Shown here in pieces: positions 46,476 to 63,273 of a stretch of 64,000 nt of DNA. The DNA lies in contig NZ_LDPE01000001.1 in NCBI RefSeq assembly GCF_001447995.1, positions 930,001 to 994,000 of the forward strand, given 5' to 3'. The stretch comes from Maribacter dokdonensis DSW-8 (GTDB lineage Bacteria; Bacteroidota; Bacteroidia; Flavobacteriales; Flavobacteriaceae). The notes beneath the pieces were generated by a model. The model searched no databases. It was not told the DNA's origin and worked only from the letters and a program-made list of their open reading frames with translations. The first letter of the stretch is position 1. The number at the start of each line of letters is the position of its first letter. The translations under genes were made by a program, and so were the position numbers.

Positions 46476-46735
46476 TTACCTTCTTAAAATTAGTCTCTTA
46501 GAAACAGGTTCATCATTATTCAATACAACAGTAACAACATATACATCTGCGGTTAAAATTTCTAATGATATTCTATACGTGCCACTTACAAAAATTTCAT
46601 TAGGGGTGTACTGCTTAATTAATCTACCCGCGGAATCATGGAGCATAAAACCGATGATATCTTCATCATCAACAATACCATTTAAAGTTATTTCAACAAA
46701 ATCTACAGACGGATTAGGTGATAATACCATATCCA
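46476..46735 (-). other. T9SS type A sorting domain of the giant protein
   Basis: The last 80 or so residues have the typical pattern SPNPSVDFVEITLNG, then DSAGRLIKQYTPN, and end with KRLILRR. Such domains direct proteins through the type IX system to the cell surface in Bacteroidota. Confidence 0.85.
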
Positions 46736-49700
46736 ACGCTACTTCTTCAAGTACTTCATTTTCTTCTACCACAATGGACAATGAAGTTGAGTCCGTTAAA
46801 CCTTCCTCATCTGTTACCGTTAAAACAACTTCATATGTACCAGCTGTTTCAAATTCAAATTCAGTATCAGCCTCAAATACTATGTTACCATCACCAAAAT
46901 TCCATTCATAAGAAACAATACCGTTATCATCAGTTGAATTACTTCCTATAAATGATACCGTAAGCGGAGCTTCACCTGTAGCCACATCTGAACTAGCCAC
47001 AGCAACTGGTGCTTCGTTGAATTCATTTTCAACAACCACCGTAATCACTAGAGATGCTTCATCTGTTAAGCCTTCATCATCGGTCACGGTCAATACCACC
47101 GTAAAATCACCGGCAGTTTCAAAAACATGCTCTGGATCAACTTCCATAGAAGTTCCACCATCACCAAAGTCCCATGAATAAGTAACAATGTTATTATCAT
47201 CTGTAGAATTACTACCTACAAACGATACTGAAAGCGGTGCTTCACCTGTTGTTATATCTGAACTAGCTATGGCAACTGGTGCTTCATTTACAACTATACC
47301 CTCTTCAACCGTTATAGTCAGCGTTGTGGTATTGGACAATCCTTCTTCATCCGTAACGGTTAAGGCTACCTCAAATACACCTGCAGTTTCAAAAACATAC
47401 TCTGGATCTGCTAAATTTGATGTACCGCCATCAATAAAATCCCAAGTATAGCTAGCTATACCATCATCATCTGTGGAGTTACTACCTACAAAAGACACAG
47501 TAAGTGGCGCTTCACCAGAAACAATATCTGAACTAGCTATGGCTACTGGTGCCACGTTTGGTTCATTTACGGTTATGGTCAATGAAGTATTATTGGTTTG
47601 ACCTTCAGCATCGCTTACCGTTAATATCACCTCATAAACATTAACATCTTCAAAAGTATATACAGGATTCATTTCATTTGAAGTTTCACCATTTCCAAAA
47701 TCCCATAAATAGGATACTACACCATTATCATCAGAAGACCCACTACCATTAAAGGAAACCGTTAGCGGAGCATCACCTTCCAATACATCTGCGGTAGCAA
47801 GCGCTATAGGAATACCATTTCCAGCCACAGAAATATTAGCGGCAGAAGTATCTACTTTACCATCTGCATCCGTAACCGTTAAGGAAACATTATAGGTATC
47901 AGAGGCAGCGTATACATGAATTGGATTTGGTTCGTCAGAGGTGTTTCCATCTCCAAAATCCCAAAAATAAGATACAATTCCGTTATCATCCGTACTTGAC
48001 GAAGAATCAAAACTTACCTGAAGTTCATCTATGGTATAATCAAAAGCACTTTCAGGTGCAGTGGTATCAGGTAAATATTGTATTAATGTAGCTTTTGTCT
48101 CAGTAGCACTATCATCTATAGAATTTGACACGCCACCTCTTCCACGTAAATGAATACTTACCAAATCATTAACTCCATCACTATAGACTTGAACCCTTAA
48201 TCCGTCCATTTGAATAGGTGCTTGTTCCGTACCACCCCATTCGTAAATACCAGCATCGATCCAGCCACCTGCTCCTTCATCCAAAACAATCCAATCATTA
48301 CCTACACGGTAACTAATTCTCCATAAAGAATTTGGCTGTGGTTGATTATCATATGCACCACCAAAGGTGATATAATTCACTAATTTACGTGAGGCCCAAT
48401 CTACTTGCCATCTAAAACCATTGTCAACATCCGGTGTTCCTAAATTAGCACCAAACGGCTCTCCATATTCATTATAATCCGTACGAACAAAATAATCATC
48501 TCTTGCCGGATCGTATAATATAGACTGTACTGTTCCCCTAGGATTCGTGGCCGATCCAGTTACCGTTGCATCTGGTAATAAGGCAATATTAATACCTGCA
48601 TTAGGTCCATTATCTGGTTGATCACTGGTTACAATAATATCTACAGATGCTTGATCCGTTAACCCTTGCTCATCTGTTACCGTTAAAGTAGCGGTATAGT
48701 TGCCAGGTTGAGTATAAACATATGTAGGATCTGCTTCCGTAGATGAATTGCCATCTCCAAAATCCCATGTATAGGTCACTACAGCAACATCATCACTTGA
48801 ATTTCTACCTACAAAATCTTCCGTAAGTGGTGCTGCCCCCGTAATTAGACTTGTTTCTATTACGGCAACTGGCGCTTCATTTGCTGGTGCACCCAAGTTA
48901 ATGACTTGAGTAGAGGTGTCGCTTAAACCGTCTGCATCGGTTACTGTTAACATAACGCTGTAAGAACCTGAAGTTGCAAACACGTTTGTTGGGTTTTGGT
49001 CAGTTGACGTATTACCATCTCCAAAATCCCATTCATAAGATATAATACCCATATCGTCAGTACTTAAAGTAGCATCAAAATCGACTTCAAGATCATTAAT
49101 AACATATTCAAAACTGCTTTCAGGAGCTCCTGTGTCCGGCAAATATTGAATCAACGTAGCCTTTGTCTCCGTAGCACTATCATTTACTTTGTTGGACACA
49201 CCGCCTCTACCTCTTAAGTGGATACTAATTAAATCATTAATACCGTCACTATATACTTGCACACGAAGTCCATCTATAGCCATTGGTGCCTGAGCTTGAC
49301 CTCCCCATTCAAATATACCAGCATTGATCCAACCTCCTGTACCTTCTTCTAAGATAGACCAGCTATTTCCAACTCTATAACTAACTCTCCACAACGAATT
49401 TGGTTGTGGTTGGTTATCAAAAACACCACCGATGGTAATGTAATTCACATTTTTTCTATTGGCCCAGTCTACCTGCCATACAAATGCATTATCAACGTCA
49501 GGTGTTCCAAGGTTTTCACCTTTTGCAACCCCATACTCATTGAAATCTGTTATTTCATAATAATTATCTCTTGATGGGTCAAAAAGAATAGCTTGCGGTG
49601 TTCCTCTACCATTTAAAACAGATCCATTTAATACTGCATCTGGAAGTAATGCCAAATTTAAACCGGCATTTGGATTGTTGTCCACAGCTCCTCCATTAGC

Positions 49701-52700
49701 TAAAATAGTGAGTTCGTCTATATTGGTGTTACCATCTGCATCGGTAACCGTTAAAGTAACCGTATAGTTGCCAGATGCCGAGTAAGTATAATTTGGATTA
49801 GCCACATTGGCAGTTTCTCCATTTCCAAAATCCCATAAATAAGAGACCACACCAGCATCGTCACTAGAATCACTACCTCTAAACTGTACATTTAAAGGTG
49901 CAGGACCTACGGACACATCTGAAGTAGCAACCGCCACCGGTATAGAATTATCTTCCATTACAGTAATTTCTTGAACCGAAATATCACTTAAACCATTGCC
50001 ATCCGTAACTGTTAAAGTAACATCATATGTACCAGAAGTTTCGTAAGTATGTACAGGGTTTGCACTGGTAGAACCGTTACCATCTCCAAAATCCCATGTA
50101 TAGGAAACAATGCCAACATTATCTGTGCTTTCAGAAGAATCAAAAGTTACTTCCAAATTATTTATAGTGTAATCAAAAGCACTTTCTGGCGCACCGGTAT
50201 CTGGTAAAAATTGTATTAAGGTAGCTTTTGTTAGGGTATCACTATCATCTAATCTATTAGAAATCCCACCTCGACCTCTTAGATGAATACTTACTACTTC
50301 ATTTACACCATTACTATACACTTGAACCCTAAGACCGTCCATCTGAATGGGTGTTGTAGTTGCACCACCCCATTCAAAGATTCCAGCATCGATCCACCCA
50401 CCAGTTCCTTCTTCTAAGATAGTCCAATCATTACCAATTCTATAACTAATTCTCCATTCAGAATTTGGTTGTGGTTGATTAGGATATACTCCACCAAAGG
50501 TGATATAATTAACTTCCTTTCTATTAGCCCAATCTACCTGCCATTTAAAACCGTTATCTACATCTGGAGTTCCTAAGTTTTCACCATTGGCAACACCATA
50601 TTCATTAAAATCAGTGACAACAAAGTAATTATCCTGTAATGGATCATATAATATAGCTTCAGGTGTACCTCGACCATTTTCTACCGAACCGCTTAATACA
50701 GCATCTGACAACAAGGCTAAATTCACATTAGCGTTTGCATTATTATCCACTGCACCTCCATTTGCAACAATTTTTATCGTTGATTCATCAGCGTTACCAT
50801 CTGCATCAGTAACCGTTAATGTAGCATTATAAGTACCAGGTACCGTATATTCATATATTGGATCTTCTTCTGAAGACGTAGAACCATCTCCAAAATCCCA
50901 AGCGTAGGAAACTATGCTAACATCATCTGTAGAACCACTGCCCGTGAATTCAACAGTCAAAGGCGCAGGACCCGATTGAACATTGGAAGAGGCATTGGCC
51001 ACCGGTATAACAGGAACTCCATCAACAGTTATACTTTGCGTAAAACTATCACTTAATCCATCAGCATCCGTTACCGTCAAAGTAACATCATAAGTTCCTG
51101 GACCTACAAAATCATAAACTGGGTTTTGTTCATCTGATGTCTCACCATCTCCAAAGTCCCAATCAAAGGTCACAATACCAACATCATCAGTACTTTCGGA
51201 AGTATCAAAAGTTACCTCCAGATCATTAGTTGTATAATCAAATCTTGCAGTTGGAGCACCATCATCTTCCAAATATTGAAACAAGGTTGCTTTTATAGGT
51301 TGGTCAGTGTCGTCAATTCTTAAAGAGTTACCTCCTCTTGCCCTTAAATGCGTACTTTCAATATCATTTACGCCATCACTATATAATTGCATACGGAAAG
51401 CATCAGCTTCAATAGGCTCTTGAGATTTACCTCCCCATTCATAAATTCCAGAATCGATCCAACCACCAACTCCTTCTTCTATTAATATCCAGTTGTCTCC
51501 TTGACGATAACTAAGTCTCCAAGCCGTATTGGGTTGAGGTTGATTAGGATAAGTACCCCCAAAAGTAATATAGTTGACTAACTTTTTATTCAACCAATCT
51601 ACTCTCCAAGTAATCGCTTCATCTATAGGTAATGTACCCGCATCATGATATTGAAGAACTCCAAATTCATTCCAATCCGTTGCTACAACGTAATCATTGA
51701 TTGAAGGGTCATATAATATATCCTGGGCTACCCCACGCCCCTCTTCACCATGTATTTGACTAGATAATATTGCATCACCAGCCAAGGCTACATTAATATT
51801 CTCATCTGCTGTATTATTAACAGCGCCACCAGTTACAGTAATTTCAATTGATTTTGATTCTGTTTGACCATCATTATCTGTAACTGCCAAAGTAGCGGTA
51901 TAAACACCTGGTACTGTATACGTATGACTAGGATCTATTTCTGAAGATGTTCCACCGTCACCAAAAGTCCATTCATATGAATCAACAGACTCGTCATCGG
52001 TAGATTCATTACCTGTAAAATTGACTATCAAATCTATATTACCAAGCGTTTTATCTGCCGAAATTACCGGTGTGGGTGGAATTGATAAGTTAGTAATCCA
52101 CTCCTCCAATAAGGCCACACCTGCTTCATCTACCTGACCTTTGGCTAACCACGGCATCATTACACCTGGTGTAGTACTATTAGCTCTATGATAAATTTGA
52201 GATTTAGATGGATCACCTACAAAAATAATCTGCTGATCCGATGGCATTTCTTCCACAGGTTCCGCAATTGATGCTGTCAATAAATTAGTTTCTATTAAAC
52301 TTTTTGATAATCTTAAATCAAAATCTGCGCGAAGGTTATTATCCGATCGATGACAATAAGCACAATTTAAATCTAAGTATGATCTTGCTTTGTCATCAAT
52401 ACTCGCATTAATATCATTAATGGATGCATGGGTCAAAAAGTTTTGTGTATCGCCATCAGTTATGGTTTCCTCTATAAAACCAAGCTCACTTAATGTTACT
52501 AATTGATTACCAGAAACACCGCCAACACCAGTATAATCATAGTCACTATTCAAATTCCGAGTTCTTGGCCCTAAAGTTCCTTTTGATATTTCATTGTGAC
52601 AACTTAAACATTCACTTGTGGATGGATATTGCCACGTAATTGTTTTGCTACCCCCACCTTCTAAAGCAACTTGAACATCTTGTGCATCACCAGAACTCAT

Positions 52701-54503
52701 ATCAATAAGAGTTGCATCGGTTTGTGCAGCATTCCACTTATATGATAAGAAAGTCCAATTTCCATTGCTATTTTTTATAGAAAATCTCGTCTCAACTTTT
52801 TGCGTCACCTCTGGGTTATTTTCATCTATAGGGTAATCAAAATGCTTTATCATTACCGAACCCACGGGAAATTCCCATATTCCATTTTCTGAATAATTAA
52901 TTTGTTCATCAACTGTATCTGGATTTCCATCATTGGGAATAGCCATCCAACGTTTTTTCAATGCACCATCGGACCAAAAAGGATCAATTAGTTCGTACGG
53001 TAAAAAACCATCTTTAACCACCAAATTTTCAACATCAGTAAAAGCTCCAGTTGCTGTCAAGGTTTGAGGTACACCAGTAACAACTCCTGGTTCAACAAAC
53101 CTTAGTAATTGTATATTATTACCTGCAGTAAGGTAAAATATGTCTCCATCAGCATCTTCTCCAAATGAAATAGGTCTTCTAGGCATAGAACCCAAAGTGG
53201 AAACCTCTCCCGAAGATATATCAACAGACAATATCTTTTCAGTAATGTAGTCCGCAGTAATATACTTTCCATTAAAAGACGTGAATTCCGAACCTCTATA
53301 TACATGACCGCCAATGATAGAACCAGCATCCTCCCTTGAGAATGCAGTTAATGGTAATTCATGAGGCATGTCATTTAACAAACTAGTAATTCCGCAACCA
53401 TTTTCAGGTCCCTGAACCTCACCTTCATATACAGGCCAACCATAATTTCCACCATATGTAAGTACATTTATTTCATCATGAGTACTTAGCCCTACATCAC
53501 CTATATATATTGAACCGGTATCCGAATCTTTACTCATACGATGTGGACTCCGTATTCCAATAGCATAAAACTCTTCAAAATTATTACCTGATGGATCTAA
53601 AAAAGGATTATCATTAGGAATAAAATAATTCTGACCTGTAACTTCTTCGGGTGCCCCTATGTCTTCAGGCATTTTTCTTATTGCCGGATGACTTTTAGTA
53701 ATGTCCATATCCACATCTATACGTAAAATACTTCCATCAATATTTTCAGATATATCTTGAGAGCTAATTGCACGTCCTTGTTCCCCTATTGCTACATATA
53801 AAAAACCATCATCTCCAAATACCAAAGCCCCACCTCGGTGTGCAGTGTTTAACATTCTACGTCTTATTAGCCTAATTCTAGAACCTTCAACAAAGGAAAG
53901 ATCAACAGGGTCAATTTCAAAACGCTCTAAATGAATGTAATTTCCATGAAAATTATTGAAATCACATCCAAAGGTTCCATTTCCTCCATCATTTAAGGTA
54001 TCATCACCTGTTTCTGATTCTGTAGTATAATATATAAACACATAATTATTACCACTTGTCCCAAAATCAGGGTGTAATTCTAGTCCTAATAGACCACCGT
54101 CCCAAACTTCAATATTTCCATCAGTTCTAGTACCCGCAGCAGAACCGACTTCTTCAGAAAAATCAACAATTAAGTTTTTAACATTTGCATTTTGATCATC
54201 TTGAAACCAAAAAATCTCCCCGTTTAGTTGACCAACTATTATCCGGTCCTGTAATGGCACAGGATTAAAGGTTAATGGATAATCAAAGGTTAAATTCTCA
54301 AATGCAACTTCATAAGGCTGAGTACTAATATTAAGATCTGGAAAGTTTGTATCCGAAAATGCTACATAAGGAGTAGCCTCAGTTAAACCAGGTCCAAAAA
54401 ACATTGGACTAAAACTCATAAAAACCGCTACTGAACCTACAACACTTGTTGCTAGCAGTAATTTTTTTACATTACGAAAAGATGAAGTAATTTTTTTAAT
54501 CAT
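46476..54503 (-). CDS. Giant T9SS-secreted protein: sugar-dehydrogenase-like head, dihaem motifs, jelly-roll and PKD repeats
   Basis: About 2675 residues from the preferred ATG at 54503; the frame is open to 54554 (2692), but the basic/hydrophobic signal follows 54503. A beta-propeller domain resembling glucose/sorbosone dehydrogenases covers the first 480 or so residues (LGLELHPDFG, HRGGALVFGDDGFLYVAIGE, NYGWPVYEGE). Two CxxCH haem motifs follow, CLSCH (52610-52596) and CAYCH (52364-52350), in a dihaem-cytochrome-like region. Then come 12 PKD domains and four jelly-roll-like modules, ending in a T9SS sorting domain (LSPNPSVDFVEITLNG...VSKRLILRR). I infer a cell-surface or released sugar oxidase bound to polysaccharide. 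No close named relative is known to me. Confidence 0.8.
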   Translation of the reverse strand: MIKKITSSFRNVKKLLLATSVVGSVAVFMSFSPMFFGPGLTEATPYVAFSDTNFPDLNISTQPYEVAFENLTFDYPLTFNPVPLQDRIIVGQLNGEIFWFQDDQNANVKNLIVDFSEEVGSAAGTRTDGNIEVWDGGLLGLELHPDFGTSGNNYVFIYYTTESETGDDTLNDGGNGTFGCDFNNFHGNYIHLERFEIDPVDLSFVEGSRIRLIRRRMLNTAHRGGALVFGDDGFLYVAIGEQGRAISSQDISENIDGSILRIDVDMDITKSHPAIRKMPEDIGAPEEVTGQNYFIPNDNPFLDPSGNNFEEFYAIGIRSPHRMSKDSDTGSIYIGDVGLSTHDEINVLTYGGNYGWPVYEGEVQGPENGCGITSLLNDMPHELPLTAFSREDAGSIIGGHVYRGSEFTSFNGKYITADYITEKILSVDISSGEVSTLGSMPRRPISFGEDADGDIFYLTAGNNIQLLRFVEPGVVTGVPQTLTATGAFTDVENLVVKDGFLPYELIDPFWSDGALKKRWMAIPNDGNPDTVDEQINYSENGIWEFPVGSVMIKHFDYPIDENNPEVTQKVETRFSIKNSNGNWTFLSYKWNAAQTDATLIDMSSGDAQDVQVALEGGGSKTITWQYPSTSECLSCHNEISKGTLGPRTRNLNSDYDYTGVGGVSGNQLVTLSELGFIEETITDGDTQNFLTHASINDINASIDDKARSYLDLNCAYCHRSDNNLRADFDLRLSKSLIETNLLTASIAEPVEEMPSDQQIIFVGDPSKSQIYHRANSTTPGVMMPWLAKGQVDEAGVALLEEWITNLSIPPTPVISADKTLGNIDLIVNFTGNESTDDESVDSYEWTFGDGGTSSEIDPSHTYTVPGVYTATLAVTDNDGQTESKSIEITVTGGAVNNTADENINVALAGDAILSSQIHGEEGRGVAQDILYDPSINDYVVATDWNEFGVLQYHDAGTLPIDEAITWRVDWLNKKLVNYITFGGTYPNQPQPNTAWRLSYRQGDNWILIEEGVGGWIDSGIYEWGGKSQEPIEADAFRMQLYSDGVNDIESTHLRARGGNSLRIDDTDQPIKATLFQYLEDDGAPTARFDYTTNDLEVTFDTSESTDDVGIVTFDWDFGDGETSDEQNPVYDFVGPGTYDVTLTVTDADGLSDSFTQSITVDGVPVIPVANASSNVQSGPAPLTVEFTGSGSTDDVSIVSYAWDFGDGSTSSEEDPIYEYTVPGTYNATLTVTDADGNADESTIKIVANGGAVDNNANANVNLALLSDAVLSGSVENGRGTPEAILYDPLQDNYFVVTDFNEYGVANGENLGTPDVDNGFKWQVDWANRKEVNYITFGGVYPNQPQPNSEWRISYRIGNDWTILEEGTGGWIDAGIFEWGGATTTPIQMDGLRVQVYSNGVNEVVSIHLRGRGGISNRLDDSDTLTKATLIQFLPDTGAPESAFDYTINNLEVTFDSSESTDNVGIVSYTWDFGDGNGSTSANPVHTYETSGTYDVTLTVTDGNGLSDISVQEITVMEDNSIPVAVATSDVSVGPAPLNVQFRGSDSSDDAGVVSYLWDFGNGETANVANPNYTYSASGNYTVTLTVTDADGNTNIDELTILANGGAVDNNPNAGLNLALLPDAVLNGSVLNGRGTPQAILFDPSRDNYYEITDFNEYGVAKGENLGTPDVDNAFVWQVDWANRKNVNYITIGGVFDNQPQPNSLWRVSYRVGNSWSILEEGTGGWINAGIFEWGGQAQAPMAIDGLRVQVYSDGINDLISIHLRGRGGVSNKVNDSATETKATLIQYLPDTGAPESSFEYVINDLEVDFDATLSTDDMGIISYEWDFGDGNTSTDQNPTNVFATSGSYSVMLTVTDADGLSDTSTQVINLGAPANEAPVAVIETSLITGAAPLTEDFVGRNSSDDVAVVTYTWDFGDGNSSTEADPTYVYTQPGNYTATLTVTDEQGLTDQASVDIIVTSDQPDNGPNAGINIALLPDATVTGSATNPRGTVQSILYDPARDDYFVRTDYNEYGEPFGANLGTPDVDNGFRWQVDWASRKLVNYITFGGAYDNQPQPNSLWRISYRVGNDWIVLDEGAGGWIDAGIYEWGGTEQAPIQMDGLRVQVYSDGVNDLVSIHLRGRGGVSNSIDDSATETKATLIQYLPDTTAPESAFDYTIDELQVSFDSSSSTDDNGIVSYFWDFGDGNTSDEPNPIHVYAASDTYNVSLTVTDADGKVDTSAANISVAGNGIPIALATADVLEGDAPLTVSFNGSGSSDDNGVVSYLWDFGNGETSNEMNPVYTFEDVNVYEVILTVSDAEGQTNNTSLTITVNEPNVAPVAIASSDIVSGEAPLTVSFVGSNSTDDDGIASYTWDFIDGGTSNLADPEYVFETAGVFEVALTVTDEEGLSNTTTLTITVEEGIVVNEAPVAIASSDITTGEAPLSVSFVGSNSTDDNNIVTYSWDFGDGGTSMEVDPEHVFETAGDFTVVLTVTDDEGLTDEASLVITVVVENEFNEAPVAVASSDVATGEAPLTVSFIGSNSTDDNGIVSYEWNFGDGNIVFEADTEFEFETAGTYEVVLTVTDEEGLTDSTSLSIVVEENEVLEEVALDMVLSPNPSVDFVEITLNGIVDDEDIIGFMLHDSAGRLIKQYTPNEIFVSGTYRISLEILTADVYVVTVVLNNDEPVSKRLILRR
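46770..47830 (-). repeat. Four tandem PKD domains (PKD9-PKD12)
   Basis: Four successive domains of about 84-90 residues each carry a WDFGDG-type core and the phrases GEAPLTVSF, GSNSTDD and LTVTDEEGL. They are more alike to each other than to the earlier PKD copies and appear to be a recent tandem expansion. Confidence 0.85.
48065..48617 (-). repeat. Jelly-roll-like module 4
   Basis: A copy of about 180 residues beginning GPNAGINIALLPDATVTGS and containing NYITFGGAYDNQPQPNS, EGAGGWIDAGIYEWGG and VSIHLRGRGG. It looks like an F5/8 type C (discoidin/CBM32-like) beta sandwich, but the fold is inferred by eye. Confidence 0.65.
49135..49685 (-). repeat. Jelly-roll-like module 3
   Basis: Begins NPNAGLNLALLPDAVLNGS and holds the same NYITIGGVFDNQPQPNS, GWINAGIFEWGG and ISIHLRGRGG framework. 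Followed by PKD6 and PKD7. Confidence 0.65.
50205..50750 (-). repeat. Jelly-roll-like module 2
   Basis: Begins NANANVNLALLSDAVLSGS, with NYITFGGVYPNQPQPNS and VSIHLRGRGGISNR. Followed by PKD4 and PKD5. Confidence 0.65.
51280..51820 (-). repeat. Jelly-roll-like module 1 (most divergent copy)
   Basis: Begins TADENINVALAGDAILSSQ, with NYITFGGTYPNQPQPNT and LRARGGNSLR. It diverges more than modules 2-4. PKD1 precedes it and PKD2-PKD3 follow. Confidence 0.65.
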
Positions 54504-54901: not shown

Positions 54902-55588
54902 ATGAGAAAAACGACAATAATCTTCATATTTTTAATTTTCATAGGAATATATTCATGTGGTGTTGATGCTGAAGTTCTTGAGTACCAAAAAAACACCATT
55001 TACTTATTATATCCAGAAGACAATTCTGAGGTTAACGAAGGAATAATACTTACAGATACAACCAATACACTTGAATTCAAATGGGAATCTTCAACTGAAG
55101 ATGAAAACCAAATATTTTACCTAGAGCTGACCAACCTCGACAACAAAATTGTTCAAGTGTATGAAAGTACTGGTAATAAAGCTTCAATTCCACTTAAACG
55201 AAACAACTCTTATTCATGGGCAGTAAGTGATTCTATAAATCACGGAAGTTCCCTTTGGACTTTTAAAAACATAGGCCCCTGGGGTACATCTACGGCGCCT
55301 TTGGCTGCAATTGCAATATCACCAGTATCAGGAGCATCAATATCGCAAACCAGTACCACCGTAAATTTAATATGGAAGGGCGAAGATGAAGACAATGACA
55401 TTTTGAACTATGATCTGTATTTTGGGGAATCTGAAATTCCCGAAATTTTTATCGAGAATATTGAAACAACTAGATATAACGATATTCCCGTTGAAGCCGG
55501 CAATACATATTATTGGAAAATAGTAACAAGAGACTATGTTGGAAATGAAACTTCCTCATCGGTTTTCAATTTCAATGTTGGAAATTAA
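54902..55588 (+). CDS. Lipoprotein with two fibronectin-III-like domains
   Basis: A 228-residue lipoprotein. The signal ends in the lipobox IYSC (Cys19). Two beta-sandwich repeats follow (about residues 33-125 and 130-228). Each has the pattern of an Asp-rich strand, a W (FKWESSTEDENQ and LIWKGEDEDNDIL) and a final YYWKI/YSWAV strand typical of the FN3-like domains in Bacteroidota surface proteins. No catalytic motif. It is divergent from the giant T9SS protein, which it may accompany at the cell surface, and lies 114 nt before the formyltransferase gene. Role unknown. Confidence 0.65.
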   Translation: MRKTTIIFIFLIFIGIYSCGVDAEVLEYQKNTIYLLYPEDNSEVNEGIILTDTTNTLEFKWESSTEDENQIFYLELTNLDNKIVQVYESTGNKASIPLKRNNSYSWAVSDSINHGSSLWTFKNIGPWGTSTAPLAAIAISPVSGASISQTSTTVNLIWKGEDEDNDILNYDLYFGESEIPEIFIENIETTRYNDIPVEAGNTYYWKIVTRDYVGNETSSSVFNFNVGN

Positions 55589-58765: not shown

Positions 58766-59212
58766 TTACTTTTTAATTTTAAGACTTTTTGTGCTTAATG
58801 GTAATTTATACATACTAAAAGGGCTTACCGCCAATTTACTTTCTTCTTTGAAAGTTTTGCTTTTAAGTTTATGAAGCTCTATAAATTTATCCTTTTCATT
58901 CAACTCGAAATTAGCATAGTTTGTTGCTGAACTATCGCCACACCAAACCAAAATCATTTCTGTTTCAAAGTCTATTATTGGCGGAGTCAACCCCGGCTTT
59001 CTGGTTCTATTTATTTTTCCGTAAAAAGCACTTAACTCTTTTTCGTTTTTTATCAAAAAATACTCCTCTTGTTCAAATCCGCTATAATTCTCATTTAAAA
59101 TAAGTTTCATACCAACATCATCAGATTCTTGCAAACTACTTTGAGCAGTACTTTTACAAGAATTTAATTGCATTATGGCGACTAATAGTAAACAAATAGA
59201 ATATTTAAACAT
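58766..59212 (-). CDS. Small lipoprotein, PrcB-like
   Basis: A 148-residue lipoprotein with lipobox LNSC (Cys19). The middle ELSAFYGKINRTRKPGLTPP and EMILVWCGDSSATNYANFEL are the pattern of the PrcB C-terminal domain, whose name comes from a protease-complex subunit of oral treponemes; the function here is unknown. Its start overlaps the 3' end of bshA by 8 nt, so it is co-transcribed and probably translationally coupled with bshA. Assigned on two stretches only. Confidence 0.55.
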   Translation of the reverse strand: MFKYSICLLLVAIMQLNSCKSTAQSSLQESDDVGMKLILNENYSGFEQEEYFLIKNEKELSAFYGKINRTRKPGLTPPIIDFETEMILVWCGDSSATNYANFELNEKDKFIELHKLKSKTFKEESKLAVSPFSMYKLPLSTKSLKIKK

Positions 59213-60344
59213 TTTTCAATCTTCCATTATAAGCTCGCACATAAACTTCTTCGTATAGCGGCACCACTTTCTGAATATCAAATCGCTGGGCTTCCTTAAG
59301 TGCATTTAACTTAAACCTTTCCAGAACATTATCATTTTTCAAAATGGTAATTGCCTTAGAAGCCATGTCGTTAATATCACCCACATCACTTAAAAACCCA
59401 CTAACACCTTCTGTGTTGACCTCTGGTATACCACCCGCATTACTAGAAATAACAGGCACCTTATTGATCATTGCCTCAAGTGCCGCAAGACCAAAGCTCT
59501 CCGATTGGGATGGCAAAAGAAACAAATCTGAAAAACACAGAATTTTATCTATCTCATTACTATTACCTAGAAATATAACTTTATCGGAAATACCCAATTC
59601 TTCGCATAAACGTTCTGCACCAGCTTTCTCAGGTCCTTCACCAACCATAATCAATTTAGAAGGAATTTCTAACTGAATTTTACTGAAAATTTTAATTACG
59701 TCCGGTATACGTTTTACCTTTCTAAAATTACTAATATGAGTTACAATACGTTCCTCCTCTGTTGCCATGTTAGACCTTTGGCAGTCGGTAAAAGAGGTAC
59801 TATACTTTTTTGCATCTATAAAATTAGGAATGACTTCGATGTCACCTTGTATATCAAAAGTTTCTAAAGTTCCTTGTTTTAAACTTTCCGACACTGAAGT
59901 AACTACGTCAGATTGGTTTATTGAGAACGTTACGGCAGGCTTATAAAAGGGGTGTTTACCCACCAAGGTTATATCTGTTCCATGTAATGTTGTTATCATT
60001 GGCACATAGATACCTTCTTCCTCTAACATTTTCTTGGCCATATAGCCAGCATAGGCATGTGGTATGGCATAATGCACATGTAAAAGGTCTATTTTATGAA
60101 GCTTAATGGTGTCAACCAATTTACTGGATAAGGCAAGTTCATATGGTTGGTAATGAAATAACGGATACTCTGGAACATGCACTTCATGAAAGAAAATCTT
60201 ATTGCTCAGCAACTCCAAACGAACTGGTTGCTTATATGTAATAAAATGAATTTCATGACCTCTATTGGCCAATGCTATACCTAACTCCGTTGCTACTACA
60301 CCACTACCTCCAAAGGTAGGGTAACATACTATTGCTATTTTCAT
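59205..60344 (-). CDS. bshA: N-acetyl-alpha-D-glucosaminyl L-malate synthase
   Basis: A 379-residue GT4-fold enzyme that makes GlcNAc-malate from UDP-GlcNAc and L-malate, the first step to bacillithiol. The N terminus MKIAIVCYPTFGGSGVVATE is almost invariant in BshA. GTDITLVGKHPFYKP and VTSVSESLKQ follow, and SESFGLAALEAMINKVPVI holds the E-x7-E pair. Length is standard. It lies 19 nt downstream of the NagZ-type gene and overlaps the small lipoprotein gene. The other bacillithiol genes (bshB, bshC) are not in the window. Confidence 0.94.
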   Translation of the reverse strand: MKIAIVCYPTFGGSGVVATELGIALANRGHEIHFITYKQPVRLELLSNKIFFHEVHVPEYPLFHYQPYELALSSKLVDTIKLHKIDLLHVHYAIPHAYAGYMAKKMLEEEGIYVPMITTLHGTDITLVGKHPFYKPAVTFSINQSDVVTSVSESLKQGTLETFDIQGDIEVIPNFIDAKKYSTSFTDCQRSNMATEEERIVTHISNFRKVKRIPDVIKIFSKIQLEIPSKLIMVGEGPEKAGAERLCEELGISDKVIFLGNSNEIDKILCFSDLFLLPSQSESFGLAALEAMINKVPVISSNAGGIPEVNTEGVSGFLSDVGDINDMASKAITILKNDNVLERFKLNALKEAQRFDIQKVVPLYEEVYVRAYNGRLKNV

Positions 60345-60363: not shown

Positions 60364-63273
60364 TTAATTCAGAATTGAATCGTAAATGGCTTGTTGAATT
60401 CTAGTTCTTAACCCAGATTTAACTAAAAGTGTATTAGATGCGGACGGATAAGTTCTGTTAGATAAAAATACATATACAATTTCCTCTTCAGGATCTGCCC
60501 ACGTATAAGTTCCCGTAAAACCACTATGCCCAAAACTTTTTCGAGAAACACAACCACATGTTGGTCCGCTGTGCTGTAATTGAGGCTTATCAAAGCCTAC
60601 TCCTCTTCTTACATTGTTTTCACAGAAATAACAAGTGTTGAATTTCTTAACCGTTCTAGAATCAAAAAATTTTGTACCGCCGTAATAACCATCTTGAAGG
60701 TACATCTGCATAATTTTTGCAATATCATTGGCATTGCTGAACAAACCTGCATGACCACCAACACCTGCTTGCATGGCCGCTCCCATATCATGAACATATC
60801 CTTGAACCGTGCCGTACCTATAATAATCATCCTCTTCTGAAGGCACTATACTATTTTTATCAAATTTCTCTAAAGGATTGTAAGTTGTATGGTTTGCTCC
60901 TATTCTTTGGTATAAAAAATTATTGGTTAAATAATCTAACCTTTGTCCATAGCTATCCTCAATTACCTTTTTCATTACGTAGTAAGGAACATCACTATAC
61001 CTATACCGGTTAGATTTTAAATCTTGCCTCCCTATTCTATTGTAAATGGAATCTTGGTAGGCATCTGTTAAATACAGATTATCATAAACTTTGGTAGAGA
61101 AACCTGGCAAAGGTGAATTTCTATAAAATTCACTTGAAGGTTTTTTGTTATCATCCAATGTTCTAATATAAAAAGGAATCCATGCCGGCAAACGTCCGTA
61201 ATGGGACAATGCTTTAAGCACTGTTACGTTCTTAATTTCTGTATTGGAGTAATTAGGAACCAACTCCTCAAAGGTATTATTAAGCCCAATTCTACCCTCT
61301 TCCTCCATCTTCATGACCATAGGCAAGGTTGCCAATATTTTGGTAAGGGAAGCTAAATCATAAATATAATCGTTAGTAATGTTCTCTTTAGAATCATAGG
61401 TAGGTTTACCAAATCCTTTTTGATAGATTACCTTACCTTTTCTAGCCACTAGCACTTGTGCCCCCGGAAACATTAAACTATCAAGGCCGTCGTGCATTAA
61501 TTCATCAATTCGTTTTAGTCCTTGTGAACTCATACCCACACGTTCTGGTATACTATAGCCCAATCTACTTAAGGACTTAACTTCTACTCCTGTATGCACC
61601 GGAAACTCTTCATGCGCCGTAACGGGCAATTTACCTGAAGCGCCTACGGCACCAAATAGTATTTCTGCAGTTTTTTCTTGGGCGATATCACTATTTTGAT
61701 ATGCCATTACCACAGCATCTATATTATTGAACGAATCGATATCCGATAGTGCGTATGGTTTTGCAAATACACATAATATAAGATTAGAAGTACGCTCATT
61801 AGCAATTTCCTGCAGCCATTCCAATTCGGAATTCGAGAACTTGTAAGACTTCCAAGGACTCTCATTATTCATATGATGACCAACAATAATCAAATTGAAT
61901 TCTTTTAGTCTTGTTATTAAAGTAGTAATATCACTTGCCTCAATTACGGTAACTTCTGCATAATTCTTTAACCCTTGGACAAATGCCTCGTTGTCCGAAT
62001 TCCCCATTTTAACATAGGCAATTTTTTTATTGTCCAAGTTCTTAATGGATAGAAGATCCAGTTTATTTTTAACTACGGTAATAGCATTTTCAATAGCTTG
62101 CTCATAAACAATATCATCTTCAAGGCCATTTAAATCGCTATATAAGTTTTCAAGCTTAATGGGTTTGTAATGATGTAAACCTGCCTTGTATTTTGCCATT
62201 AGAATTTTCTTAACCGAATAGGCTAAACGATCCTCTGTCAATTTACCTTTTTCATAAGCCTTAGTCAATTTCTCTTTGGCACTTACAATATTCTCTGGCA
62301 TTAATAGCATATCATTACCTGCCATAAAAGCTGCAAGTTCTACACTACCCTCTTTACCGGTTGTGGATACTCCTTTCATATTAAGGGCATCTGTAAAAAT
62401 CAAGCCATTATACCCTAATTCCTCTTTTAAAATTCCTGTAATTATTTGTTCTGAGATTGAAGAAGGCAGTTCTTTCTTCATTTCAAGAGCTGGCACCTCT
62501 AAATGGGCAACCATAATACTGCTTAAACCTGAACCTATTAATTTTTTAAACGGATACAATTCTAGACTATCCAACCTTTTTTTGGAAAAAGGAATTATGG
62601 GTAAATTATGATGAGAATCTACCTCGGTATCTCCGTGACCGGGAAAATGCTTCCCATTGGCCAACACACCAGCCCTTTCCATTCCTTTTATAAAAGCAAT
62701 TCCTTTTTGAACTACATTATCCCTGTTTTCACCAAAAGAACGATTTCCTATAATAGGATTCTTTGGGTTGGTATTAATATCTAAATCTGGAGCAAAATTT
62801 ATATGCACCCCTAAACGTTTGGCATGTTTACCTATTTGATAACCTACTCTTTCAACAATGGAACTGTCTTGTATAGCACCTAGTGTCATATTCCACGGAA
62901 AAGCATAAGTAGAATCCAATCTCATGGAAAGTCCCCACTCGGCATCCATCCCGATCAATAAAGGGATTTTAGATACGGCTTGATAATTATTGGTAAGTTT
63001 TGCTTGACGTACCGGCCCGCCCTTGGAAAAAATAACACCGCCCAAGTGCTCCTGAACAATCAGGTTTTTAATTTTATCGGTAGCCTGTTTGCTTTGGTTA
63101 GATGCTACACTGACCATAAACAATTGCCCCAGTTTTTCATCCAAGCTCATTTGAGCATATTGGCTATTCACCCACGCTTGTTGTGCTAAGCTGTCACCGG
63201 TAACTAACGGATTTTGGGCTGATAGTACCGAATAGCAAAACAACCCACAAATAATAATAAAAATATGGCGCAT
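60364..63273 (-). CDS. GH3 beta-N-acetylglucosaminidase (NagZ type) fused to a serine hydrolase
   Basis: A 969-residue secreted protein with a signal peptide ending LSAQ (residue 20). Residues about 35-365 are a GH3 domain with the NagZ signature KHFPGHGDTEVDSHH (208-222; His213/Asp215 dyad) and the nucleophile Asp295 in LIFTDALNMKG. A GH3 C-terminal domain (about 390-560) follows. Residues about 580-965 are a class-C beta-lactamase-like domain with Ser642 and Lys645 in DLASLTK and a late HSGFTGTY motif. It would cleave GlcNAc-MurNAc muropeptides and perhaps their peptides. This fusion occurs in Bacteroidota. It could feed the MurQ pathway at 5.9-12.6 kb. Confidence 0.9.
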   Translation of the reverse strand: MRHIFIIICGLFCYSVLSAQNPLVTGDSLAQQAWVNSQYAQMSLDEKLGQLFMVSVASNQSKQATDKIKNLIVQEHLGGVIFSKGGPVRQAKLTNNYQAVSKIPLLIGMDAEWGLSMRLDSTYAFPWNMTLGAIQDSSIVERVGYQIGKHAKRLGVHINFAPDLDINTNPKNPIIGNRSFGENRDNVVQKGIAFIKGMERAGVLANGKHFPGHGDTEVDSHHNLPIIPFSKKRLDSLELYPFKKLIGSGLSSIMVAHLEVPALEMKKELPSSISEQIITGILKEELGYNGLIFTDALNMKGVSTTGKEGSVELAAFMAGNDMLLMPENIVSAKEKLTKAYEKGKLTEDRLAYSVKKILMAKYKAGLHHYKPIKLENLYSDLNGLEDDIVYEQAIENAITVVKNKLDLLSIKNLDNKKIAYVKMGNSDNEAFVQGLKNYAEVTVIEASDITTLITRLKEFNLIIVGHHMNNESPWKSYKFSNSELEWLQEIANERTSNLILCVFAKPYALSDIDSFNNIDAVVMAYQNSDIAQEKTAEILFGAVGASGKLPVTAHEEFPVHTGVEVKSLSRLGYSIPERVGMSSQGLKRIDELMHDGLDSLMFPGAQVLVARKGKVIYQKGFGKPTYDSKENITNDYIYDLASLTKILATLPMVMKMEEEGRIGLNNTFEELVPNYSNTEIKNVTVLKALSHYGRLPAWIPFYIRTLDDNKKPSSEFYRNSPLPGFSTKVYDNLYLTDAYQDSIYNRIGRQDLKSNRYRYSDVPYYVMKKVIEDSYGQRLDYLTNNFLYQRIGANHTTYNPLEKFDKNSIVPSEEDDYYRYGTVQGYVHDMGAAMQAGVGGHAGLFSNANDIAKIMQMYLQDGYYGGTKFFDSRTVKKFNTCYFCENNVRRGVGFDKPQLQHSGPTCGCVSRKSFGHSGFTGTYTWADPEEEIVYVFLSNRTYPSASNTLLVKSGLRTRIQQAIYDSILN

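What the first reader, a model, noticed from the sequence alone, without database searches (positions are those of the whole stretch)
46476..54503. Giant T9SS surface protein joining a sugar-dehydrogenase-like propeller, dihaem motifs and 16 binding-type repeats
One chain combines a glucose/sorbosone-dehydrogenase-like domain, two CxxCH haem motifs (CLSCH, CAYCH), four jelly-roll-like modules, twelve PKD domains and a T9SS tail. This would be an oxidoreductase with its own electron-transfer haems, anchored at the cell surface. How haem is attached to a T9SS cargo and where the electrons go are open questions. I know no described protein of this layout.
Basis: partly seen in the sequence, partly recalled or inferred. 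Interest (0 to 1): 0.75.

Follow-up and report, generated by a model that had tools for sequence, protein, structure and literature searches.

The report
Surface sugar-dehydrogenase–dihaem cytochrome giant
A very large bacterial protein, probably on the cell surface, joins a sugar-oxidising-type propeller, two haem-binding sites, sugar-binding-type modules and an export tag; it belongs to a widespread but untested family and may be a bacterial counterpart of a fungal secreted enzyme that oxidises sugars and passes electrons through a haem.

Summary
On the minus strand (54503→46476) one 2675-residue frame encodes, in order: signal region, six-bladed GSDH propeller, TIGR03806-type dihaem cytochrome (CLSCH 632, CAYCH 714), 12 PKD domains interleaved with four CBM32/fucolectin-like beta-sandwiches, and a sub-threshold T9SS tail. 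It is not unique. All 120 listed homologues keep exactly two CxxCH motifs, and 584 of 595 matched genome stretches encode relatives, in several phyla. Databases name some 'PQQ-dependent sugar dehydrogenase'. The exact 12-PKD + 4-module layout occurs in six of these 121 proteins; the two named ones besides the window are Maribacter.

The propeller is Hedgehog-interacting-protein-like. The catalytic His and an active-site Arg are invariant (52/52), but the RxR pair of bacterial PQQ enzymes is lost, and no PqqC was found in 36 of 36 same-genus genomes. PQQ use is possible but unproven. An invariant Met follows haem 2; haem 1 has no invariant Met or extra His.

Best reading: a surface quinohaemoprotein-like carbohydrate dehydrogenase, working like fungal CcPDH (propeller + cytochrome + CBM) but with two c-haems and a T9SS tag. 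No LPMO_10 partner was found in the genus. Nothing was tested at the bench.

The parts
46476..54503 (-). whole gene, 2675 aa (P0001)
   Evidence: open frame
54384..54503 (-). N-terminal signal region (residues 1-40), no lipobox seen
   Evidence: sequence; a lipobox-like pattern in 3 of 121 family proteins; cleavage site not predicted by a tool
53094..54326 (-). six-bladed GSDH / HHIP-like beta-propeller (about residues 60-470)
53838..53840 (-). His222, equivalent of the catalytic His (sGDH His144)
   Evidence: 52 of 52 cores; aligned to the HFGG/HNGG His of solved enzymes
53550..53552 (-). Arg318, equivalent of the active-site Arg (CcPDH Arg430; sGDH Arg228 by recall); the next residue is Ser319 where the solved bacterial enzymes have Asn
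   Evidence: Arg 52 of 52; position 319 Asn 36, Ser 11, other 5 of 52; RNP/RNPQ in solved enzymes
52086..53069 (-). TIGR03806-type domain: beta-rich part (about 479-630) then dihaem cytochrome c
   Evidence: full profile length; 52 of 52 cores match the family at E<=0.001
52596..52610 (-). haem-binding motif 1, CLSCH (632-636)
   Evidence: C, C, H 52 of 52
52350..52364 (-). haem-binding motif 2, CAYCH (714-718)
   Evidence: C, C, H 52 of 52
52155..52157 (-). Met783 (Met-Pro), likely distal ligand of haem 2
   Evidence: Met and Pro 52 of 52; ligation inferred
51834..52076 (-). PKD domain 1
   Evidence: PF18911; WTF at 845; boundaries approximate
51240..51827 (-). binding-type module 1 (residues 893-1088)
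50760..51239 (-). PKD domains 2-3
50175..50759 (-). binding-type module 2 (1249-1443), CBM32/fucolectin-like fold
49695..50174 (-). PKD domains 4-5
49110..49694 (-). binding-type module 3 (1604-1798)
   Evidence: 76% identical to module 2
48642..49109 (-). PKD domains 6-7
48042..48641 (-). binding-type module 4 (1955-2154)
46761..48041 (-). PKD domains 8-12
46476..46760 (-). T9SS type-A-like C-terminal sorting tail
   Evidence: TIGR04183 E 3.8e-4 and PF18962 E 1.5e-4, both under the curated cut-off

Best explanation
A cell-surface quinohaemoprotein-like carbohydrate dehydrogenase. Proposed mechanism: Sec export; a CcsBA-type system attaches haem at CLSCH and CAYCH in the periplasm; the folded protein leaves by T9SS and is held at the surface; the four CBM32/fucolectin-like modules, spaced by PKD domains, hold a surface or algal glycan; the propeller (His222 as base, Arg318) oxidises a sugar, probably with PQQ or another quinone taken from outside; electrons pass through the two c-haems to an acceptor not yet known. 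Shown here: domains and their order, invariance of the haem motifs and of the His/Arg pair, predicted folds, presence of SprA and a CcsB-like frame. Inferred: haem attachment, redox role, cofactor, substrate, surface location.
Against: The RxR pair of bacterial PQQ enzymes is not kept: its columns are mostly Asn/Asp/Gly and Ile in the family (R443 and I445 in the window). The window has Ser where Asn is commonest next to Arg318. The nearest solved relative by profile is HHIP, known as a binding protein. No PqqC in 36 of 36 same-genus genomes or in 12 of 12 genomes of relatives, while the same search rings in 5 of 28 genomes of the order of G047. No LPMO_10 in 36 of 36 same-genus genomes, so the fungal electron sink is not available in that form. 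T9SS tail, TIGR03806 and TIGR03606 all under their cut-offs. No experiment.
Confidence: 0.5

Rival explanations
1. HHIP-like binding protein: the propeller has lost catalysis and, with the CBM32-like modules, is a glycan-binding or adhesive surface protein; the haems are structural or serve redox contact with neighbours.
For: Profile search puts the HHIP entries first (105 bits; the first other entry, 2g8s, has 91.6); the RxR pair is missing; no PQQ synthesis gene found; most of the protein length is PKD and binding-type modules.
Against: His222, Arg318 and also His272 are 52/52, which a dead propeller need not keep; in the alignment HHIP itself has His where the family has this Arg; two haem motifs kept in 121/121 suggest redox work.
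Confidence: 0.22
2. The dihaem unit is the enzyme (peroxidase- or oxygenase-like, one haem with an open or unusual distal site) and the propeller is only a scaffold or substrate holder.
For: Only one invariant Met (783) for two haems; 75 of 121 proteins have no Met at all between the two motifs, and no His there is invariant (position 692 is His in 14 of 52), so haem 1 may be five-coordinate or have an unusual ligand.
Against: No dihaem peroxidase family among the matches listed for the window; His554 (46 of 52, Gln in 6) could reach haem 1; no coordinates were available to measure this.
Confidence: 0.13
3. Extracellular electron conduit: the protein accepts electrons from other donors and passes them to outside acceptors; sugar oxidation is minor.
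For: The name-giving SO_2930 is listed as outer-membrane/extracellular in Shewanella, an organism of extracellular electron transfer (PMC4837345, one passage).
Against: Two haems are few for a conduit; the propeller precedes the haems in 52 of 52 aligned cores.
Confidence: 0.08

Closest known systems
Fungal PQQ-dependent pyranose dehydrogenase CcPDH (CAZy AA8-AA12-CBM1)
   Same: [quoted passage not shown] also lacks part of the canonical bacterial PQQ ligands; no PQQ synthesis reported in eukaryotes (PMC6881789, PMC4133262 passages).
Bacterial aldose sugar dehydrogenase / sGDH (PF07995; 2g8s, 3a9g, 1c9u)
   Different: RxR pair missing; inserts; fused dihaem domain.
Hedgehog-interacting protein (HHIP) propeller
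   Same: Closest solved relative by profile; shares GGxVYRG and xFGED stretches.
   Different: HHIP does not keep the Arg318 equivalent in the alignment; no haem domain is recalled for it.
TIGR03806 / SO2930 family dihaem c-type cytochrome
   Same: Full-length match, two CxxCH.
   Different: 221.9 bits, under the curated cut-off 313.3; fused behind a propeller.
Database entries 'PQQ-dependent sugar dehydrogenase' / 'PKD domain-containing protein' of Maribacter, Winogradskyella and others
   Same: Same core; P0002, P0003, P0004, P0006 and P0007 also have 12 PKD and 4 modules by my profiles.
   Different: Nothing basic; other members carry ricin, malectin, PA14, F5/8 C or Big_2 domains.

Membership tests
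GSDH (Pfam PF07995) | score over the gathering cut-off | tested here: met
   110.5 bits against 25
PQQ-dependent sugar dehydrogenase (sGDH/Asd type) | catalytic His and active-site Arg | tested here: met
   His222 and Arg318, 52 of 52
PQQ-dependent sugar dehydrogenase (sGDH/Asd type) | RxR pair binding PQQ carboxylates | tested here: not met
   R443/I445 in the window by hhalign to a canonical enzyme; family columns N18/D12/G11/R3 and I33 of 52; RIR/RLR/RYR in solved enzymes
PQQ-dependent sugar dehydrogenase (sGDH/Asd type) | NCBIfam TIGR03606 curated cut-off | tested here: not met
   56.2 bits against 434.55
PQQ-dependent sugar dehydrogenase (sGDH/Asd type) | binds PQQ and oxidises sugar | not testable with these tools
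   needs purified protein
TIGR03806 SO2930 dihaem cytochrome | curated score cut-off | tested here: not met
   221.9 against 313.3 bits; 0 of 36 same-genus genomes have a match over it
TIGR03806 SO2930 dihaem cytochrome | full-length alignment with two CxxCH | tested here: met
   profile 2-314 of 314, 1.1e-65; both motifs 52 of 52
T9SS cargo (type A) | C-terminal sorting domain over the cut-off | tested here: not met
   20.4 of 23 bits (TIGR04183, profile 2-71 of 72) and 22.5 of 27 (PF18962, 3-74 of 75); 14 of 16 members, window included in the 16, match TIGR04183 at E<=0.01
T9SS cargo (type A) | host has T9SS | tested here: met
   SprA 2892.3 bits; other parts not searched
AA12 (fungal CcPDH type) | sequence membership in AA12 | tested here: inconclusive
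   [not shown]
CBM32 / F5-8 type C | fold | tested here: met
   [not shown]
CBM32 / F5-8 type C | Pfam sequence match | tested here: not met
   no family at E<=1 for residues 908-1100 (module 1); none among the families of the whole protein

The most novel reading that the evidence does not exclude
Many marine Flavobacteriaceae display on their surface, as T9SS cargo carrying covalently bound haem, a modular bacterial counterpart of the fungal quinohaemoprotein pyranose dehydrogenases. It uses scavenged PQQ (or another cofactor held in a new way) in a Hedgehog-interacting-protein-like propeller, so that polysaccharide binding, oxidation and extracellular electron transfer sit in one chain.
Probability: 0.35. 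Interest if true: 0.75.

Novelty: new variant of a known kind. Interest (0 to 1): 0.5.

Why it matters
If the haems and the propeller work together, it would be a T9SS-exported c-type haem oxidoreductase that joins glycan binding to electron export in a common group of marine bacteria. It would also bear on whether Hedgehog-interacting-protein-like propellers are enzymes in bacteria. The family is large and conserved, so one expressed core could answer for hundreds of genes, some of them now named 'PQQ-dependent sugar dehydrogenase', for which I found no experimental proof in the library searched.

Tried and rejected
Chance CxxCH motifs: rejected, both conserved 52/52 and exactly two in 121/121. 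Singular architecture: rejected. LPMO partner: PF03067 in 0 of 36 same-genus genomes, control rang in Lactococcus lactis; other LPMO families not searched. PQQ synthesis: PqqE gave three matches far under the cut-off in the own genome (best 57.5 of 381.35 bits), as it did in 14 of 14 control genomes; PqqC 0 of 36 and 0 of 12, positive control 5 of 28 genomes of the order of G047, whose record is titled Pseudomonadales. Rapid shuffling of tails: not seen for PKD and the beta-sandwich module; on a FastTree of 121 cores the four labels need 7 changes against a shuffled mean of 57.2, though near-copies make labels cluster; other modules were not labelled. A general tie to polysaccharide-synthesis loci: not borne out; only 8 of 75 genome-contig loci carry OmpA393, FemAB/GNAT or u228 neighbours like the window's (Maribacter, Croceivirga and one Bacteroidia MAG; many loci are cut short by contig ends). 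The cytochrome half got no fold match of its own in the rows shown, because the propeller filled the list; it was not folded alone. Literature: the searches showed no experimental paper on this architecture or on a haem-bearing T9SS cargo; two returned nothing at all for T9SS with multihaem or extracellular electron transfer terms. Of the hits only passages or an abstract and outline were read, the rest as listings; the library lacks most subscription papers. Genus: taken as Maribacter because a same-genus genome (G026) has a contig of 4,783,464 bases, the length of the contig that bears P0004 of Maribacter sp. BPC-D8; inference. Limits: only proteins of 0.55-1.75 times 2675 aa were candidates, only the 7986 sharing most words were scored and only the best 120 of 246 are listed, so shorter or more distant relatives could not appear there.
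Full report
WHAT IS THERE. The gene runs on the minus strand from ATG 54503 to 46476 and encodes 2675 residues. Pfam finds GSDH (110.5 bits) and 12 PKD_4 stretches. NCBIfam finds TIGR03806, a dihaem c-type cytochrome family, over its whole length at residues 479-806 (221.9 bits, below the curated 313.3). CLSCH (632) and CAYCH (714) are the only CxxCH motifs. Order: signal region, propeller, beta-rich domain plus dihaem cytochrome, PKD1, module 1, PKD2-3, module 2, PKD4-5, module 3, PKD6-7, module 4, PKD8-12, T9SS-type tail. The tail scores 20.4 bits with TIGR04183 and 22.5 with PF18962, both under cut-off.

HOW COMMON. A search with residues 40-830 gave 246 proteins; the 120 listed cover 94-100% of that region. 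That search could only return proteins of about 1471-4681 aa, so their great length is partly by construction. All 121 proteins (window included) have exactly two CxxCH; the second is CAYCH in 115. A tblastn of the core against these loci gave 80 segments covering over 700 residues, in 73 loci; I aligned the window with 51 of these 80 (A2). Among 36 genomes of the genus, 33 match TIGR03806 at E<=0.001, some only weakly and in other proteins. Six of 121 proteins have both the PKD domains and the beta-sandwich modules: P0001-P0004, P0006, P0007, each with 12 PKD and 4 modules by my profiles. They fall together on the core tree, with P0005 (three modules, no PKD) among them.

HAEMS. Both CxxCH motifs are 52/52. 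Met783-Pro784 is 52/52, and an MP pair follows motif 2 within 110 residues in 121/121. No Met lies between the motifs in 75 of 121. Beyond the CxxCH histidines, the only His kept in at least 46 of 52 in residues 475-815 is His554 (46, the other six Gln). Haem 1 therefore has no obvious Met ligand: His554 or another group binds it, or it is open. The own genome has a 1080-aa frame matching CcsB at 179.1 bits (cut-off 187.6), so haem attachment before T9SS export is plausible. That T9SS passes folded proteins from the periplasm is recalled knowledge.

SURROUNDINGS. The gene lies beside a likely surface-polysaccharide cluster (acyltransferase, glycosyltransferase, sugar transferase, ATP-grasp) and, on the other side, a lipoprotein-like gene, formyltransferase, FemAB/GNAT, OmpA, BshA and GH3-beta-lactamase. 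By phmmer, 8 of 75 genome loci have OmpA393, FemAB/GNAT or u228 neighbours of this kind, and so do five of five same-genus stretches that I picked because they hold such giants, though the fifth shows one such neighbour only. In L033, L034, L041, L068, L085 and L124 a protein with a haem-less GSDH propeller and a FAD protein lie alongside (the Pfam make-up was checked in L033 only). Among the named loci this tie is limited to Maribacter, Croceivirga and one Bacteroidia MAG.

COFACTOR AND ACCEPTOR. PqqC is not found in 36 of 36 same-genus genomes nor in 12 of 12 others; the positive control rang in 5 of 28. LPMO_10 is not found in 36 of 36. If PQQ is used, it most likely comes from outside; the acceptor is open.

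VERDICT. Observation confirmed; interpretation partly supported. It works most likely like a surface quinohaemoprotein dehydrogenase (0.5), with a binding-protein reading (0.22) and a haem-enzyme reading (0.13) next. Membership in 'PQQ-dependent sugar dehydrogenase' is not established, since the RxR feature and the TIGR03606 cut-off are not met. Novelty: new variant of a known kind, in a large family already named in databases but, as far as the searches of the held library show, without experiment.

Noticed in passing
own genome G000: C6 148596-151045 (L126), C4 start (L127), C10 start (L128): A 63%-identical paralog runs off the end of contig C6 where a beta-sandwich module begins, and contigs C4 and C10 begin with module ends plus T9SS-like tails that are 98.7% alike over 299 bases: the assembly seems to break in these repeats, and at least two more such tails exist. 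Not joined.
   Followed up: partly
L033 44-3532 and 3654-5186; by phmmer also in L034, L035, L041, L068, L085, L124: Beside the haem giants lies a protein with an HHIP-like GSDH propeller but no CxxCH (in L033 with a Rax2 propeller and a T9SS tail), in six of these seven loci with a FAD-NAD(P)-binding-type protein: a haem-less sister.
   Followed up: partly
window 60364-63273: GH3 joined to a beta-lactamase-like domain in one frame, next to BshA of bacillithiol synthesis (59205-60344).
   Followed up: no
window 54902-55588: Divergent 228-aa lipoprotein-like gene without a Pfam match at E<=1e-4, kept near the giant in four named Maribacter or Croceivirga loci and three unnamed same-genus stretches.
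   Followed up: no
L095 (Gammaproteobacteria MAG): The homologue there ends in a hydrophobic stretch and an Arg-rich tail, unlike a T9SS tail, suggesting another anchoring system.
   Followed up: no
G000:C10 16305-17318: Part of a 5927-aa frame with similarity to the PKD region.
   Followed up: no
window 53676-53693, minus strand (residues 271-276): His272 is invariant (52/52) with Ser271 in 51 and Arg276 in 48 of 52, in a stretch that the alignments to L005 and L006 leave mostly as an insert; role unknown.
   Followed up: no
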